DNA from: Candidatus Zixiibacteriota bacterium
GTDB lineage: Bacteria > Zixibacteria > MSB-5A5 > WJJR01 > JAJRUJ01
Direction of reading: 5' to 3'
DNA: 64,000 nucleotides
Assembly (NCBI GenBank): GCA_020051695.1
Contig: JAGVQM010000012.1
Coordinates: forward strand, 70,361-134,360
Shown: positions 46,758-53,895 of the stretch, piece by piece
How positions within the stretch are numbered: the stretch's first letter is position 1
How the letters are laid out: each line of letters begins with the position of its first letter
Made by a program: the position numbers and the translations under genes
The notes under the pieces: model-generated
Databases searched by the model: none
The model's input: the letters and a program-made list of their open reading frames with translations, nothing else
What the model was told of the DNA's origin: nothing

Positions 46758-46803
46758 TTCCCGGATTGTGGAATCCCGGCCTCATTTTTCGTATGTTTGC
46801 CTG

Positions 46804-49197
46804 ATGGACCGTCACACGCTGAACATACTGGAATTCGGCAAGGTCATTGAATCGGTCGCCGGGACCTGCCTGACCGTGCTGGGCCATGAAGTCGTCACCC
46901 GGCTTCAGCCGCAGACTGAGCATGACCGCATCGTCCGCCAGCTGGACGAAATGCGGGAGATGGTCACCGTCCTCGAAACCGAGGGTGATTTTCCGCTGGG
47001 CCGCGTCGCCGATATTCGCGAACCGCTGCTGCGCTCGCTGCTGGAGGGCACATTTCTGGACCCCAAAGAACTGCTGGCCATCGCCGAGTTTCTGGAGATG
47101 TGCCAGGGGTTGATGAAATTTTCCAAAATCTCTCAGGAAAAATACCCCCTGTTGGAAGAACATTTGTCCCGGCTGGTCTCGGGGTTTGAACTGGTCAAAC
47201 GGATTCGGACGGCCATCGATGAAGACGGCGAGGTGCGGGACAACGCTTCCCGCGAACTGCATCAGTTGCGCGGAGAAAAACGGGCAGTCCGCGACTCGAT
47301 CATCGCCCGGCTGCAGCAGATCCTGGCCAAAAAAGACCCCGACCCGGCGTGGCAGGAAGATGTCATCACTCTGCGCAACGACCGTTTTGTCATCCCGGTG
47401 CGGGCCGGTGACCTGTCGCCGCGCGACGGGGTCATTCAGGACCGGTCATCTACCGGTCAGACGTTGTTTGTCGAACCGTTCAAAGTCATCGAGTTGAACA
47501 ACCGCCTGCGGCAGGTGTTGATCGATGAGCGGCAGGAAGTGGAACGGATCCTGCGCTCGATTACCCGCATGGTTGCCGGCGAAGCGGACCATCTGGGGGA
47601 AAACATCCGGGCGGTGGGCATCCTTGACTCGCTGTATGCCCGTGCCCGCTGGGCCAAACGAACCGAATCGTGTATTCCCGAGCTGGTCGATCGGCCGCAG
47701 TTCCACATCATCAAGGGGCGGCATCCGCTGCTGGTGATCAAAGCGCTGGAGGCGGCCCCGGACCTGCGCGAAGAGGTCGTGCCGATCAGTGTCGAGCTGG
47801 GCGAGTCGTTTACCGCGCTGGTGGTCACCGGGCCCAACACCGGCGGCAAGACTGTCTCGCTAAAAACCGTCGGTCTGTTGACCCTCATGGCACAGTCCGG
47901 CCTGCCTGTTCCCGCCGCTGCGGGCACGAAAATGGGTATCTTCGGCGCCGTATTCGCCGACATCGGCGATGAACAGTCGATTGAATCGTCGCTGTCGACC
48001 TTTTCCTCGCATGTCCGGCGGATCCGCAACGCGGTCGAGGGGGCCGACGAACGGTCGTTGGTCCTGCTCGATGAACTGGGCGCCGGGACCGACCCCCGTG
48101 AGGGCGCGGCGCTCGGCGAAGCCATTATCACTAGTCTGACCGAAAAAGGCGCGCGCGTAATGTGCACCACACACTATACCGCGCTCAAAGCGCTCTCGCA
48201 AAACAACCCCCTGATCGAAAACGCGGCGGTGGAATTCAACAAAGAGACCCTCCAGCCGACATACCGCCTGCATCTCGGCGTGCCCGGCGCCTCGTACGCC
48301 ATTGATATCGCCCGGCGGCTGGGGATGCCGCAAACCATTACTGAAAAGGCGGCCTCATTGCTGGGCGACCAGGAACTGAACCTCACGCGCCTGCTGGCCG
48401 AACTGGAAGACACGCTGGCCCGTGTGCGCAAGCAGGAAGAGGAGCTGTCGCAGCGCTTGTCGGCAACCGGCGAACTGGACCGGGAGTTGCAGGAACGGAA
48501 AACCCGCCTGCAGGACGCCGAGCGGGATTTTCAGAAAAAGGCGCTGGCCGAATCAGAAAAAATTATCGCCGAGACCAAAGGCGAGATCGAACGGCTGGTC
48601 AAGGAAATCCGGGAAACACAAGCCCACAAGGACGTGGTGAAAAAAACCCACCAGTATCTGGCACAGAAGGCGCAGGAGACCAAAGTGAAAATCGCGGCGT
48701 TGCAAGACCCGCCGGCGCCGAAACCACAGACTGTTGAAGGCCCCCTCCATAAAGGTGACCGCGTGTGGGTGGAGCCGTTCAATAAAGAAGGTGAAGTCGC
48801 CGATATTTTCTCCGACCAGCAAAAAGTAAAATTGCGGTTGGGCAACATGTTTTACACCATCGATGAAGCCCATTGCCGTAAGCTGCAATCCGCCACGCCC
48901 CCCAGGCGCGAAGTGCGGCCCGCCCCGATCAGTTATGAGGTAACCAGCAATGTCGGCCCGGAAATCTCCCTGCGCGGCCTCACCGGCGAAGAGGCCCGCG
49001 AAGCGCTCGACCGGTATCTCGATGAGGCGTTGCTGGCCGGGTGGGAGGAAATTCGCATCGTGCACGGCAAGGGCACCGGCGTCCTGCGGCAGGTAGTGAC
49101 CGACATGGTCAAAACCGACAAGCGCATCGTCTCCCACCGCATCGGTGAATGGAACGAAGGCGATTTGGGGGTCACGATTGCGCGGTTGAAAAAATAA
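46804..49197 (+). CDS. mutS2: MutS2 ATPase with Smr domain
   Basis: The 797-residue protein has the MutS2 core (about 1-310) and an ATPase with Walker A GPNTGGKT (343-350). Walker B L-L-D-E-L-G-A-G-T-D-P and the conserved TTHYTALKA follow. A long coiled coil (about 515-635), a KOW-like segment (DRVWVEPFNKEGEVADIF) and a C-terminal Smr domain with LRGLTGEEAREALDRYLDEA and H754 in IVHGKGTG complete it. MutS2 acts in recombination control and in rescue of collided ribosomes. No ribosome binding site is evident before ATG 46804, which the family alignment favours. Confidence 0.95.
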   Translation: MDRHTLNILEFGKVIESVAGTCLTVLGHEVVTRLQPQTEHDRIVRQLDEMREMVTVLETEGDFPLGRVADIREPLLRSLLEGTFLDPKELLAIAEFLEMCQGLMKFSKISQEKYPLLEEHLSRLVSGFELVKRIRTAIDEDGEVRDNASRELHQLRGEKRAVRDSIIARLQQILAKKDPDPAWQEDVITLRNDRFVIPVRAGDLSPRDGVIQDRSSTGQTLFVEPFKVIELNNRLRQVLIDERQEVERILRSITRMVAGEADHLGENIRAVGILDSLYARARWAKRTESCIPELVDRPQFHIIKGRHPLLVIKALEAAPDLREEVVPISVELGESFTALVVTGPNTGGKTVSLKTVGLLTLMAQSGLPVPAAAGTKMGIFGAVFADIGDEQSIESSLSTFSSHVRRIRNAVEGADERSLVLLDELGAGTDPREGAALGEAIITSLTEKGARVMCTTHYTALKALSQNNPLIENAAVEFNKETLQPTYRLHLGVPGASYAIDIARRLGMPQTITEKAASLLGDQELNLTRLLAELEDTLARVRKQEEELSQRLSATGELDRELQERKTRLQDAERDFQKKALAESEKIIAETKGEIERLVKEIRETQAHKDVVKKTHQYLAQKAQETKVKIAALQDPPAPKPQTVEGPLHKGDRVWVEPFNKEGEVADIFSDQQKVKLRLGNMFYTIDEAHCRKLQSATPPRREVRPAPISYEVTSNVGPEISLRGLTGEEAREALDRYLDEALLAGWEEIRIVHGKGTGVLRQVVTDMVKTDKRIVSHRIGEWNEGDLGVTIARLKK

Positions 49198-49213: not shown

Positions 49214-49879
49214 CTAAACACCGACCGGTTTCCCCCACTCAAAGCGTTGGACTACACTCCACCCCGGACCGTTGCCTTCGTAGTACGCCGGCGTTATGGC
49301 CATGGGATCAGCGACATCACAACCACCCCGGTTGAGCACGTACGCCGCGACGGTGGAACACACACCCAGCCGTCGGGCCTTGTCGCCGACAAAACGGATG
49401 ACCCGTTTGTATGCCCCGAGAATGAATCCGCTGATGGCAAAATCCGCCAGATCGCCCAGGTCGTATTTCCTGCCGATCCACGCGACGGCCTCCTCGACCA
49501 TCGGGCCGCTGTGCAGCGGTTCCCGCCATTCGTTGATTGCGTAAGTCTTGTCCCAAAGATAGTGGGGATGCGTCCATTGCGCCGTGGGCCAGGTTTGCTC
49601 GAACAGGACGAGCGTCCCCGGACCGACCTCGCCCGCTTCGAAATGATTGTTTGCCTCGTGGACCGCATACTCCAGCCGCAGCCGTTCTGGAGCGGGCAGG
49701 ACGACATACACATGTACCGGCCGCCAGTTTTTCCCGTACTTTTTCTTCTGGTATTTTCTTATCCCCCAATACAGGATTTTCAGATGCAGTTCGTACCACC
49801 GGGGAAACGATTGCTTGGTAATTACACGTCCGGCACGCAGGACGTCCGGCAAAACAGCAACATCTGACATAGAAAACAC
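49214..49879 (-). CDS. Permuted papain-like (YiiX/NlpC-P60-like) hydrolase
   Basis: The 221-residue product places a histidine (H56 in RPVHVYVVLP) ahead of a cysteine (C174 in GVCSTVAAYVLNRGG). This is the order of permuted papain-fold enzymes such as YiiX, with KYDLGDLADFAISGF between them. Such proteins cleave peptide or lipid amide bonds. No signal peptide is visible, so it is probably cytoplasmic. The fold call rests on motif order only. It converges on mutS2 with 16 bases between stops. Confidence 0.6.
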   Translation of the reverse strand: MFSMSDVAVLPDVLRAGRVITKQSFPRWYELHLKILYWGIRKYQKKKYGKNWRPVHVYVVLPAPERLRLEYAVHEANNHFEAGEVGPGTLVLFEQTWPTAQWTHPHYLWDKTYAINEWREPLHSGPMVEEAVAWIGRKYDLGDLADFAISGFILGAYKRVIRFVGDKARRLGVCSTVAAYVLNRGGCDVADPMAITPAYYEGNGPGWSVVQRFEWGKPVGV

Positions 49880-49992
49880 TCCGAAAATCTATACGGCTTC
49901 ACGCGGCACGTTGGGAAAACAAATTTATGTTGCGGATGTTGAGCGCGGTTTGTTCCGCCCGTCCGGCTGAGGATGAATCCGAGGTCTGTAGA

Positions 49993-50988
49993 CTACGGCG
50001 CCGTGCCCGGCCCATCATCCGCCACGCCGATACGGAGGTAATATATCGATTCGTCCCGAATAAATATTGTATTGGCGGTCGTATAAAGCGCAGGAAAAGT
50101 CGCGGCCAGCCGCATCTCGGGATGGGAGACACAATATGCCGTATCCGGCCGGGGCGCAAACGGCCTGCGGTTGGGGAATAGTAAATGCCCGTTTGCCGGA
50201 TCGACGATACCGTCGATAACATCAAGCTTGCCGTCCGGGCTGCGCACACCGTCTTCATCGTAGATATCCAGTCCGAGGAGCTGAATTAACGGCACACCGG
50301 CCTGATCGTCCAGATTAACACTGTCTTCCTCTGTCCCCGGCGGACCATAAAATACATCCACCTTTATTTCACCCGCCGTGAAGCCGGTCACACCAAGGTC
50401 ATACACGTTGAGCCACTGGTATTCCCAGGTGGGCGATCCGGGATACGGTATCGCCGCTTTCAACATCTTGAGTACCCGGGATTCCCCGGGCCGGGGGTCC
50501 ACGGCCCCGATTTGGAATTCGCCCTGTGGCGTGGCCACCCACATCCAGCAGGCCAGGACCTCATCCGACGGCAGCGGCTCGTGAAACCGCAGGCGGAACA
50601 GCCGAGGGTCGAGGAAATAATCAATGCCTTCGTCCAATTCATGCATATATGACGCAAAAATATTTTTGGGGTAAGCCCCCAGGTCGCGCGGGTCGATCGC
50701 GATCACCGCAAAGATATCCCCCGGCGTCTCCGCCGATCCCTCGACGAATAATTTGAAACCGATTATACTGTCCTGGCCTGTGGTGAAACCGATGCCCAGC
50801 GAATCGGCGCCGAATTTCCCGACATCATAGTAGGTCCGTGGCAAATATTGATAGTCACGCAGATAAGTGTAGGTGTATGAGCGATGGTCATCCCCGCCCG
50901 ATGATACCGGATCGCTCGAACATCCGGCGATTGCAACGACCGCCAGCATCATGGCCATGGACCGCAAATACAAATTCGACCTCATCAT
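49993..50988 (-). CDS. Lipoprotein of unknown function
   Basis: The 331-residue product has lipobox IAGC (Cys23). The mature part is beta-rich and contains a D-x-D-x-D-G-like acidic segment (L-D-I-Y-D-E-D-G-V-R-S-P-D-G-K-L-D-V-I-D-G), and a closing strand I-Y-Y-L-R-I-G. These resemble short segments of SprA-like gliding/type IX proteins and dockerin-type calcium loops, but no family is certain. ATG 50988 lies five bases after GAGGGG; ATG 50985 directly follows it. Confidence 0.6.
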   Translation of the reverse strand: MMRSNLYLRSMAMMLAVVAIAGCSSDPVSSGGDDHRSYTYTYLRDYQYLPRTYYDVGKFGADSLGIGFTTGQDSIIGFKLFVEGSAETPGDIFAVIAIDPRDLGAYPKNIFASYMHELDEGIDYFLDPRLFRLRFHEPLPSDEVLACWMWVATPQGEFQIGAVDPRPGESRVLKMLKAAIPYPGSPTWEYQWLNVYDLGVTGFTAGEIKVDVFYGPPGTEEDSVNLDDQAGVPLIQLLGLDIYDEDGVRSPDGKLDVIDGIVDPANGHLLFPNRRPFAPRPDTAYCVSHPEMRLAATFPALYTTANTIFIRDESIYYLRIGVADDGPGTAP

Positions 50989-51210
50989 CCCTGTCCCCTC
51001 CTTATTCGTCTGCTCATCATTTACATATACCATAATATTTTCTATCGCCCCTACGTGTGATTTTTTGATAATGTTTCAGGATGCTTGTACACCGCAACAG
51101 CCCCCGCAGAATGGGTTTTGCGACAGGCGGCAAAATGATTATCTTCACCGGGCAATGAAAAAACAGGTCCCAGTCCACGTGAATTCTCAACCCCCATCCG
51201 ATTTCGCGGT

Positions 51211-52107
51211 ATGACGGCAATACCGGAGTCGGCATCGGGCGGTGTAACAGCGGCCGGTCACGACGTTATCCCGCATACCGGCCGCCGCTGGTGGATCGCC
51301 GGGTTATGGACTCTGGTCAGTCCGCCGACTGCATTTTTATATGTAGGGCTGGCCGGCGGTGCCGTCGCCGGCTACTCCCTGGGTGTCGTCTGGATGGTCT
51401 TTTGCCTGTTTGCCGAATTTAATGCGCGGCTGTACGGGTTGGTGGTCGCAGTCGGAGTCCTGCTGGTCTATTCAACTATCCCGGTATTGGCGGCTCTGGC
51501 GCGACGGCGATTGTACCGGAAAAATCGGTGGAACAATCGCCGCTGGTATCTGTTCTCCCTGGCACTGTCTCTGGTGGCGGTGGTGTTCGTCCACCTGACA
51601 CAGAAAAAAATCATCGGCCTCGACAGCCACACTGTGCGCACGACGTTCATGGCCAATACTCTGCTGCCGGGCGACTATATCCTGATCGACACCCATGCTT
51701 ATGGCCGTGTCGAACCGCAGCCCGGCGACCTGGTCGTATTCCAGGCCCCACGGCCCCCACAGCGATCACTGGTTATGCGAGTCGTCGGCTTGCCCGGCGA
51801 TACGTTGCGTATTACATTCAAGTTATTGTATATCAACGGCAAAATGATCGGCGCGCCGGCCACCGCCACATTTAACGATCCGGAGCGCATTTTTCCGGAA
51901 CAGCTCTCCCCCCGGGACAATTACGGGCCGCTGGTAGTGCCGGCGGACCACTATTTTTTGTTGGGGGACAACCGCGACGAAGCGCGTGATTCACGATTCT
52001 GGGGGCCGGTGCCTCGGGAAATGATCCTGGGCCGGGCAAAAATGATATATTGTTCCCGAAAGGGATTGATCGCGCGGCTGGAGCGCATCGGGCGCCACTT
52101 GAAATAA
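51211..52107 (+). CDS. Signal peptidase I paralogue lacking the catalytic Ser and Lys
   Basis: The 298-residue protein has four N-terminal membrane helices (about 28-130) and an S26-type periplasmic domain. Box B reads RTTFMANTLLPGDYILID, where active enzymes have SGSMxxTL; the serine position is F146. Box D reads LVMRVVGLPGD, where K of KRV is replaced by M189. Box E, LLGDNRDEARDSRFWG, is intact. The fold is kept but the dyad is gone, so it is probably a non-catalytic relative, perhaps binding preproteins. No ribosome binding site precedes the ATG. It lies 48 bases before dnaG. Confidence 0.85.
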   Translation: MTAIPESASGGVTAAGHDVIPHTGRRWWIAGLWTLVSPPTAFLYVGLAGGAVAGYSLGVVWMVFCLFAEFNARLYGLVVAVGVLLVYSTIPVLAALARRRLYRKNRWNNRRWYLFSLALSLVAVVFVHLTQKKIIGLDSHTVRTTFMANTLLPGDYILIDTHAYGRVEPQPGDLVVFQAPRPPQRSLVMRVVGLPGDTLRITFKLLYINGKMIGAPATATFNDPERIFPEQLSPRDNYGPLVVPADHYFLLGDNRDEARDSRFWGPVPREMILGRAKMIYCSRKGLIARLERIGRHLK

Positions 52108-52155
52108 AATATTCCGCGCCGAGGCAAAAGCTGCAGTCCGGACAGGCAAGTGACC

Positions 52156-53895
52156 ATGGTTATCGGTGATGATTTCAAAGACCGTGTCCGCGAGGCGACC
52201 GATATCGCCGCCGTGATCGGGCAGTATGTCACGCTTAAAAAGCGGGGCAAAAACCTCCTGGGACTGTGTCCATTTCATACTGAAAAAACACCTTCGTTTA
52301 CGATCCATCCCGACCGGCAGTTTTTTCACTGCTTCGGCTGCGGCAAAGGCGGTGATGTATTCACATTTTTGATGGACCATGAGGGGTGGTCGTTTCCGGA
52401 AACACTGAAATACCTTGCGGAAAAAGCGGGTATTCCGCTGCCGCAGCGGCGCTCGCCGGAGGAGACCGACCGCTATGGCCGGCTGCTGGCCGCCAATGCC
52501 GCCGCCGCCGAGTTTTTTGGGCGGATGATCGGGCAACCCGAGGGACGGCAGGCGCTGAAATACATTGCCCAGCGCGGCGTGCCGCAATCCCGGCTGGCCG
52601 AATTGGGCATCGGATACGCGCCGGACGGCTGGGATGGTCTGCTCAAATTTGCCGCACGCCGAAAACTCCCCGAACAAGCGCTGCTGGAGGCCGGGCTGGT
52701 CGTGGAAAAAGAAGGCGGCGGGCGGTATTACGACCGGTTTCGCGACCGTTTGACCTTTGCCATCGCCAACCTTTCCGGCCGAGTCGTCGGTTTCGGCGCC
52801 CGGGCTTTGAAACAGACCGAACAGGCCAAATATATCAATTCTCCCGAAACCCCGGTGTACCGCAAAAGCCATCTCCTGTATGGATTGGACAAATCGCGGG
52901 AGGCAATCCGGCAAGCCGGGTATGCAGTGGTGGTCGAGGGGTATACCGATTGGACATCGCTTTATCTCAATGGGATATGCAATGTAGTGGCCTCCTCGGG
53001 GACGGCGTTCACCGCCGAGCAAGCGAGGTTACTGGCACGTTTTTCCCCGAATGTTGTGTTACTGTTTGATGCCGATGCCGCCGGTGAAAAAGCCGCCCTG
53101 CGCGGGGTGGAGATCCTGTTCCGCGAGGGATTGGATGTCAAAATCGCCGCTTTGCCGCCGGGGTCGGACCCTGATTCTGCGGCCCGGGAACAGGGGAAGG
53201 AATTTATTACCCAAATTCTGCGAGCAGCCAAAGAATATGTTTCATACCGTGTGGGTCGTGCCGGCGAGATCATGCGCAGCGGCGGTTTATTGGAGCAGGA
53301 AGCGGTTATCAGGGAACTTGTAACAATGGCAACATCAATGGTCAATATCGAACGCCGAAAACTTCTTATGAAGCAAATATCCGATGAGACGGGGATTGGG
53401 GAAGGCATTCTACAGAAAGAATACTTGGGTACAGAGCATGAGAGAATAGAGAATCTGAGATATGTTGCAGATATCACTGAAAGGACCTCTATTTCGGTCG
53501 AAGAGGAATTTTTAAGGATATTGCTTGAAAAACCTGAATTTGTGGAAAAGGCAAAGAACCAAATCTACGACTACCATTTTCGTTCGCATAGTCTCGCCGG
53601 GATGTACAATCAACTTATTGATATGTATAAGATTAAGGGGAGAGTTGAATTGAATGATTTGGGACAAACACAGGAAGAAAAACTGGAATGGGTTAAGATA
53701 GCCACGAAAATGTATATGCCACCAGATTTAGGTGAAGCTGTCTTTGACGATTATGTCAAAAAACTCTCTGCGATTAAACCTATTCAGCAAAGAAGTGATT
53801 TAAAACGGCGAATCAAAGAAGCCGAACAACGCGGGGACCAGCAGGAAGCCGACCGGTTGACCCGAAAGTTGACCGAAAAACGCTTGACAGAATAA
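52156..53895 (+). CDS. dnaG: DNA primase DnaG
   Basis: The 579-residue protein has the CHC2 zinc finger (C38, H41, C59, C62). The catalytic core follows with KYINSPETPVYRKSHLLYGL and a TOPRIM domain: E261 in VVEGYTDWTS, D305 and D307 in FDADAAGEKAALRG. The C-terminal helicase-binding domain extends over about 390-579. It makes primers for replication with DnaB. GTG 52150 could replace ATG 52156 as start. Codons about 385-551 are clearly more AT-rich and use AGA arginine codons, unlike the rest. rpoD does not follow, as it often does. Confidence 0.95.
   Translation: MVIGDDFKDRVREATDIAAVIGQYVTLKKRGKNLLGLCPFHTEKTPSFTIHPDRQFFHCFGCGKGGDVFTFLMDHEGWSFPETLKYLAEKAGIPLPQRRSPEETDRYGRLLAANAAAAEFFGRMIGQPEGRQALKYIAQRGVPQSRLAELGIGYAPDGWDGLLKFAARRKLPEQALLEAGLVVEKEGGGRYYDRFRDRLTFAIANLSGRVVGFGARALKQTEQAKYINSPETPVYRKSHLLYGLDKSREAIRQAGYAVVVEGYTDWTSLYLNGICNVVASSGTAFTAEQARLLARFSPNVVLLFDADAAGEKAALRGVEILFREGLDVKIAALPPGSDPDSAAREQGKEFITQILRAAKEYVSYRVGRAGEIMRSGGLLEQEAVIRELVTMATSMVNIERRKLLMKQISDETGIGEGILQKEYLGTEHERIENLRYVADITERTSISVEEEFLRILLEKPEFVEKAKNQIYDYHFRSHSLAGMYNQLIDMYKIKGRVELNDLGQTQEEKLEWVKIATKMYMPPDLGEAVFDDYVKKLSAIKPIQQRSDLKRRIKEAEQRGDQQEADRLTRKLTEKRLTE

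What the first reader, a model, noticed from the sequence alone, without database searches (positions are those of the whole stretch)
51211..52107. Signal peptidase I paralogue without its catalytic Ser-Lys dyad
The S26 fold is well conserved, including box E GDNRD and VVGLPGD, yet the serine position is Phe146 and the general-base lysine is Met189. Both changes together argue against sequencing error. A dead peptidase kept intact, next to dnaG, could bind preproteins, regulate an active SPase I or act as a transport chaperone.
Basis: partly seen in the sequence, partly recalled or inferred. Interest (0 to 1): 0.6.

Follow-up and report, generated by a model that had tools for sequence, protein, structure and literature searches.

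The report
Dead signal peptidase kept beside dnaG
A membrane protein with the fold of the enzyme that trims secreted proteins has lost all three active-site residues and much of its substrate groove, yet is kept intact in two related bacteria that also carry working copies, so it probably works as a binding or scaffold protein rather than as a protease.

Summary
Confirmed and extended. Window 51211-52107 encodes a 298-aa type I signal peptidase (S26) homologue in a Candidatus Zixiibacteriota genome. Aligned to E. coli LepB, Ser90 is Phe146, Lys145 is Met189, and Ser278 is Ala258. The genome has three other, intact SPase I genes. The only ortholog found (another genus of the same family, 45-47% identity) is also dead but with Ala/Leu/Ala, so sequencing error is excluded. 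Both genes lie directly upstream of dnaG, inserted in a mutS2-dnaG pair that is adjacent in 16 of 25 relatives. dN/dS is about 0.23 (dS saturated). AlphaFold2 gives a confident LepB-like domain behind an N-terminal helical membrane domain. The peptide cleft has diverged unusually far, which argues against preprotein binding in the classical groove. In 132 genomes of the phylum, 11 of 17 S26 proteins with this extension lack one or both dyad residues, against 1 of 116 sampled ordinary ones, with at least five changes on the tree; one dead lineage overlaps a PBP1A gene. Non-proteolytic SPase homologues are known (SipA, SpsA). This is a new variant of a known kind: a membrane pseudo-signal-peptidase, probably an adaptor or scaffold with unknown partner.

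The parts
51211..52107 (+). pseudo-signal-peptidase I gene (298 aa)
   Evidence: ortholog in G001 (L035:3587-4486 -)
51283..51501 (+). N-terminal extension, aa 25-97: helices 27-44 (broken), 48-67, 70-97; counterpart of the PGLGxLYCG (TM2-like) domain of other extended Zixiibacteriota S26 proteins
   Evidence: AlphaFold2 model; weak TM2/DUF6677 Pfam matches in relative P0003 only; alignment A3
51538..51615 (+). helix 110-135 after a strongly positive loop (RRRLYRKNRWNNRR); equivalent of the LepB membrane anchor that leads into the periplasmic domain
   Evidence: topology inferred by the positive-inside rule
51619..52062 (+). S26 (LepB-like) domain, aa 137-284
51646..51648 (+). Phe146 codon at the nucleophile position (LepB Ser90)
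51775..51777 (+). Met189 codon at the general-base position (LepB Lys145)
51982..51984 (+). Ala258 codon at the LepB Ser278 position
   Evidence: Ala in the G001 ortholog too
51964..51978 (+). box E GDNRD (structural core), intact
52150..53895 (+). dnaG, 42 bp downstream, same strand, probably co-transcribed (inference)
46768..49197 (+). mutS2, the upstream partner; lies directly upstream of dnaG in 16 of 25 other relatives
49214..51033 (-). two minus-strand genes (49214-49879 and 49993-51033) between mutS2 and the pseudo-SPase in the window, absent from that place in G001

Best explanation
The gene encodes a membrane-anchored signal peptidase I pseudoenzyme. Shown by sequence: it has the full S26 core and a helical membrane extension, has lost Ser90, Lys145 and Ser278, has lost conservation of the substrate cleft, and is retained as an intact gene with dN/dS below 1. 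Inferred: the S26 domain sits on the periplasmic face of the inner membrane and cleaves nothing; hydrophobic side chains (Phe146, Met189, Ala258) occupy the former active site; the fold works as a protein-binding module (adaptor, scaffold or assembly factor) through surfaces other than the signal-peptide groove, while the three intact SPase I enzymes do the processing. Catalysis was probably lost in the common ancestor of the two genomes (Ala258 is shared), after which the dyad positions drifted separately to Phe/Met and Ala/Leu. The gene was inserted between mutS2 and dnaG, which likely gives housekeeping expression rather than a link to primase. The binding partner is unknown.
For: Three active-site residues lost in both orthologs with different replacements at the dyad. 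Three intact SPase I paralogs in the genome. Of the positions at least 95% conserved in 45 ordinary SPases, those changed in both orthologs are the catalytic positions (146, 189, 258), the cleft strand (139, 140), and 161, which active extended proteins also mostly lack; the structural core (Met147, Gly154, Asp155, Arg190, Gly196, Arg235-Asp236, GDNRD, DSR, Trp264, Gly274, Ser282) is kept. Cleft identity 3/12 outside the dyad against 0.50 for the rest of the domain; only 2 of 708 matched active pairs are that low. Codon-position identity 0.56/0.65/0.36, NG86 dN 0.55 and dS 2.39. AlphaFold2 pLDDT 90, pTM 0.79. Foldseek hits LepB, SpsB, SipA. Place next to dnaG shared with G001. Dyad loss in 11/17 extended S26 proteins against 1/116 short ones. 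The PBP1A-linked dead lineage has dN/dS of about 0.077.
Against: Only two orthologs are known and dS between them is saturated, so the strength of selection is rough. The protein evolves faster than the active SPases of the same genomes (45% identity against 60-72%). No partner is identified and there are no expression data. The adaptor role is taken by analogy with SipA, not shown here.
Confidence: 0.6

Rival explanations
1. A preprotein-binding decoy or chaperone: the dead SPase binds signal peptides in the classical groove and delays, sorts or presents them.
For: SipA lost its dyad but kept a peptide cleft (PMC4049620). Met147, Val/Ile188 and Leu/Ile151 still give a hydrophobic floor.
Against: The equivalents of Pro87 (Arg/Lys), Ser88 (Thr/Ala), Phe84 (His/Val) and Tyr143 (Leu) are replaced, and the cleft is unusually divergent between the orthologs, the opposite of SipA.
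Confidence: 0.13
2. A regulator or partner of the active SPases or the Sec machinery, forming hetero-oligomers or competing for membrane sites without using its own cleft. This is one specific form of the best explanation.
For: Three active paralogs coexist with it; shared fold and membrane anchor.
Against: It is not located with any of the active SPase genes; no direct evidence of interaction.
Confidence: 0.2
3. A decaying paralog on its way out, not yet broken.
For: Faster evolution than the active paralogs; a clade of only two genomes. One other extended gene (G057, L037) has a broken frame.
Against: Intact ORF and structural invariants in two genera after dS saturation; shared position next to dnaG; confident model of the whole protein.
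Confidence: 0.14
4. A peptidase with a rearranged active site that uses other residues.
For: The S26 family does vary its base: relative L062 has His at the Lys position.
Against: No candidate nucleophile/base pair near the site is shared by both orthologs; all three active-site positions are non-polar in both.
Confidence: 0.03

Closest known systems
SipA of Streptococcus pyogenes (PDB 4n31, 4k8w; PMC4049620)
   Same: SPase I fold without the Ser-Lys dyad (Asp48/Gly85), no peptidase activity, membrane protein with an extracytoplasmic S26 domain; 4n31 is the PDB hit with the highest target-normalised TM-score (0.78-0.79).
   Different: SipA keeps a conserved peptide-binding cleft and is needed for sortase-built pili in a Gram-positive. 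Here the cleft is not conserved, there is an N-terminal multi-helix extension and no pilus operon is nearby.
SpsA of Staphylococcus aureus (PMC12445088)
   Same: SPase I homologue lacking two conserved catalytic residues, in a cell with an active SPase I (SpsB).
   Different: One active SPase I there, three here. The SpsA sequence was not compared here.
E. coli LepB (PDB 1b12, 1t7d)
   Same: S26 core fold, boxes D and E, membrane-anchored periplasmic domain.
   Different: Active enzyme with Ser90, Lys145 and Ser278; two N-terminal transmembrane helices instead of the extension seen here.
Dead S26 protein overlapping PBP1A in Zixiibacteriota family f12 (L039, L040, L041; found here)
   Same: N-extended S26 protein without the dyad, under purifying selection.
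   Different: Separate lineage (Cys, Gly or Ala, Trp at the three sites), weaker S26 match, tied to the PBP1A gene instead of mutS2-dnaG.

Membership tests
Type I signal peptidase (S26A) by descent | S26 fold and family match above the curated cut-off | tested here: met
   PF10502 125.9 bits (cut-off 22.9), TIGR02227 121.7 bits (cut-off 47); Foldseek LepB E 1e-10
Type I signal peptidase (S26A) as an enzyme | Ser nucleophile and Lys (or His) general base | tested here: not met
   Phe146 and Met189; Ala and Leu in the ortholog
Type I signal peptidase (S26A) as an enzyme | Ser278 equivalent supporting the base | tested here: not met
   Ala258 in both orthologs; Ser in all 114 scorable short SPases
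Type I signal peptidase (S26A) as an enzyme | signal peptide cleavage | not testable with these tools
   needs a biochemical assay
SipA-type pseudo-SPase | dyad lost, fold kept | tested here: met
SipA-type pseudo-SPase | conserved peptide-binding cleft | tested here: not met
   3/12 cleft positions outside the dyad identical between orthologs; Pro87, Ser88, Phe84 and Tyr143 equivalents replaced
SipA-type pseudo-SPase | encoded in a sortase pilus operon | tested here: not met
   neighbours are mutS2, dnaG and two genes without Pfam match

The most novel reading that the evidence does not exclude
In Zixiibacteriota, signal peptidases with an N-terminal multi-helix (TM2-like) domain have been turned repeatedly into non-proteolytic membrane proteins. 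They form a class of envelope adaptors or assembly factors (one lineage tied to PBP1A, another carried with mutS2-dnaG) that use the S26 fold without catalysis, a role so far described only for Gram-positive SipA.
Probability: 0.35. Interest if true: 0.6.

Novelty: new variant of a known kind. Interest (0 to 1): 0.42.

Why it matters
Few signal peptidase I pseudoenzymes are described, and the one with a shown role found here (SipA) acts in Gram-positive pilus assembly. A phylum with repeated loss of the dyad in one domain architecture, retained genes and conserved neighbourhoods gives comparative material to ask what an SPase fold does without catalysis. It is also an annotation warning: the NCBIfam equivalog for signal peptidase I matches this dead protein well above its cut-off.

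Tried and rejected
Sequencing error or frameshift: rejected, because three sites are changed and the ortholog in another MAG is also dead. Alternative dyad nearby: rejected, nothing suitable is shared by both orthologs. One ancient dead clade: rejected, the dead S26 proteins are not monophyletic (AU p 1.8e-7). Function moved to the N-terminal domain: not supported, its conservation relative to the S26 domain (ratio 0.82) is ordinary for extended pairs (mean 0.88). Functional link to DnaG: not favoured, because the mutS2-dnaG pair occurs without S26 in 16 of 25 other relatives. A sigma-70 consensus scan found no plus-strand promoter upstream (uninformative). The search for related loci with a five-row alignment found no conserved stretch; with two rows it returned only the G001 ortholog plus ordinary or distant SPases. 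No held paper mentions both Zixibacteria and signal peptidase. My first counts (10/17 against 1/115) left out the contig-truncated G042 protein and one short SPase with an overlong frame; one search has the corrected counts.

Full report
Check of the observation. The ORF at 51211-52107 (+) is complete (298 aa) and is an S26 protein by Pfam and NCBIfam, well above the cut-offs. HMMER alignments with E. coli LepB chains place Phe146 at Ser90 and Met189 at Lys145. The same alignments show Ala258 at Ser278, the residue that contacts the catalytic lysine in LepB (established knowledge). All three active-site residues are therefore gone, while box E GDNRD, DSR and GLPGD remain. The codons were read directly from the DNA.

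Where it comes from. The window lies in contig C37 of a 3.5-Mb assembly, 98.9% complete. The nearest record with the gene is the MAG Candidatus Zixiibacteriota bacterium Dive96_bin10.176 (JAJRUJ01), whose contig length of 76,210 equals that of G001:C125, so G001 is taken to be that MAG. The window genome has three other S26 genes, one alone and two in tandem, all with Ser and Lys. The cell thus has working SPase I.

The ortholog. Among nine genomes of the order only G000 and G001 carry the gene. The G001 protein (P0002) is 45-47% identical and has Ala, Leu and Ala at the three sites. In both genomes the gene lies just upstream of dnaG on the same strand (gap 42 bp in the window). In G001 it overlaps the end of mutS2, in the order cvpA-mutS2-S26-dnaG-zinc-ribbon protein. 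In the window two minus-strand genes lie between mutS2 and S26. In 16 of 25 other relatives with dnaG, including all six of the sister family in the order, mutS2 lies directly upstream of dnaG on the same strand with no room for an S26 gene (L155, L157, L159, L160, L167, L169, L170, L173, L175-L181 and L183). The gene is therefore best read as an insertion into an older gene pair in the ancestor of this family.

Selection. Codon-position identities between the two orthologs are 0.56, 0.65 and 0.36, and NG86 gives dN 0.55 and dS 2.39. dS is saturated, so the ratio of about 0.23 is rough. The protein changes faster than two active SPases compared between the same genomes (dN 0.20 and 0.32).

What is kept and what is lost. 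Against 45 ordinary Zixiibacteriota SPases the structural core is kept in both orthologs. The near-invariant positions changed in both are the three catalytic ones, cleft-strand positions 139 and 140, and position 161, which active extended proteins also mostly lack. I took 14 cleft-lining positions of LepB (list from memory of the LepB structure papers, mapped by alignment). Three are identical between the orthologs, against 68 of 134 other positions in the domain; none of 735 active pairs with similar divergence is as low. Leaving out the two dyad positions, the figure is 3 of 12 against a mean of 6.5, with 2 of 708 active pairs as low. The groove has thus been largely released from constraint together with catalysis. 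This is the main reason for not following the preprotein-binding idea. It rests on one pair of sequences.

Structure. AlphaFold2 on a 65-sequence alignment gives pLDDT 90 and pTM 0.79: helices 27-44 (broken), 48-67, 70-97 and 110-135, then the S26 beta domain. The strongly positive loop before helix 110-135 suggests that the S26 domain is outside the cytoplasm (inference). Foldseek finds LepB, SpsB and SipA. Full-length TM-scores are moderate, as those structures lack the membrane part; the best target-normalised score is SipA, 0.78-0.79.

A wider pattern. In the 132 genomes of the phylum held here I found 17 S26 proteins with an N-terminal multi-helix extension, many with a PGLGxLYCG-like motif that weakly resembles TM2/DUF6677 domains. 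Eleven lack Ser, Lys or both: F/M (window), A/L, G/M, V/Q, C/G, C/G, C/A, G/K, S/D, S/E and the contig-truncated G042 protein (Ser kept, Lys lost). Six keep both. Of 116 short SPases sampled from the listed hits, 115 have both residues and one has Lys to Gln; Ser278 is present in all 114 scorable ones. Fisher p is 3.8e-11, or 2.7e-10 without G042, ignoring relatedness. The tree, with the three sites left out, needs at least five changes of state, six by my reading if loss is irreversible, and rejects a single dead clade. The window and G001 proteins form a 100/98 clade; its deeper placement is weak.

A second dead lineage (family f12: G043, G021, G038) overlaps the end of a PBP1A gene in all three genomes, and its closest pair has dN/dS of about 0.077. 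So a dead S26 protein can be under strong selection in this phylum; the neighbour hints at envelope assembly.

Comparison with what is known. SpsA of S. aureus lacks two conserved catalytic residues (PMC12445088). SipA of S. pyogenes, with Asp48/Gly85, is inactive, keeps its cleft and is essential for pilus polymerisation (PMC4049620). The window protein works like these in being a dead SPase in a cell with active ones. It is not filed as SipA type, because the conserved cleft and the pilus context were tested and not met.

Verdict. A real, retained signal peptidase pseudoenzyme, most likely a membrane adaptor or scaffold with unknown partner. The kind is known; the architecture, the phylum, the loss of the third residue and the cleft, and the repeated losses make it a new variant.

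Noticed in passing
L039:3953-4837 (-), L041:2402-3289 (+), L040:3635-4519 (-): A separate catalytically dead N-extended S26 protein (Cys and Gly or Ala at the dyad) overlaps the end of a PBP1A gene in three Zixiibacteriota genomes and is under strong purifying selection.
   Followed up: partly
L146:2679-3548 (+) and L151:2399-3292 (+): Genome G073 has two N-extended S26 paralogs about 16 kb apart, one dead (Gly/Met) and one with the intact dyad.
   Followed up: partly
L144:2373-3479 (-): An S26 protein with the N-terminal membrane domain duplicated and Lys replaced by Asp.
   Followed up: no
L148:2380-3210 (-) and L150:2218-3108 (+): Half-lost dyads: Ser to Gly with Lys kept (G099), and Lys to Glu with Ser278 to Ala (G084).
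   Followed up: no
L062:5704-6573 (+): A deltaproteobacterial S26 protein with His at the general-base position, like the Ser-His type of the ER; weakly the nearest branch to the window clade.
   Followed up: no
L084:5989-6540 (+): A short S26 protein of Pseudoxanthomonas wuyuanensis with Asn at the Ser position and Gln at the Lys position.
   Followed up: no
window 49214-49879 (-) and 49993-51033 (-): Two genes with no Pfam match lie between mutS2 and the pseudo-SPase in the window but not in G001; the second looks like a lipoprotein (signal peptide followed by a cysteine, VAIAGCSS).
   Followed up: partly
L018 (G035:C174:1408-2013): The only ordinary short Zixiibacteriota SPase in the census without the lysine (Gln).
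   Followed up: no
L037 (G057:C30): An N-extended S26 gene with Ser and Lys present but its frame broken in the middle and Ala at the Ser278 position: a likely decaying copy or assembly error.
   Followed up: no
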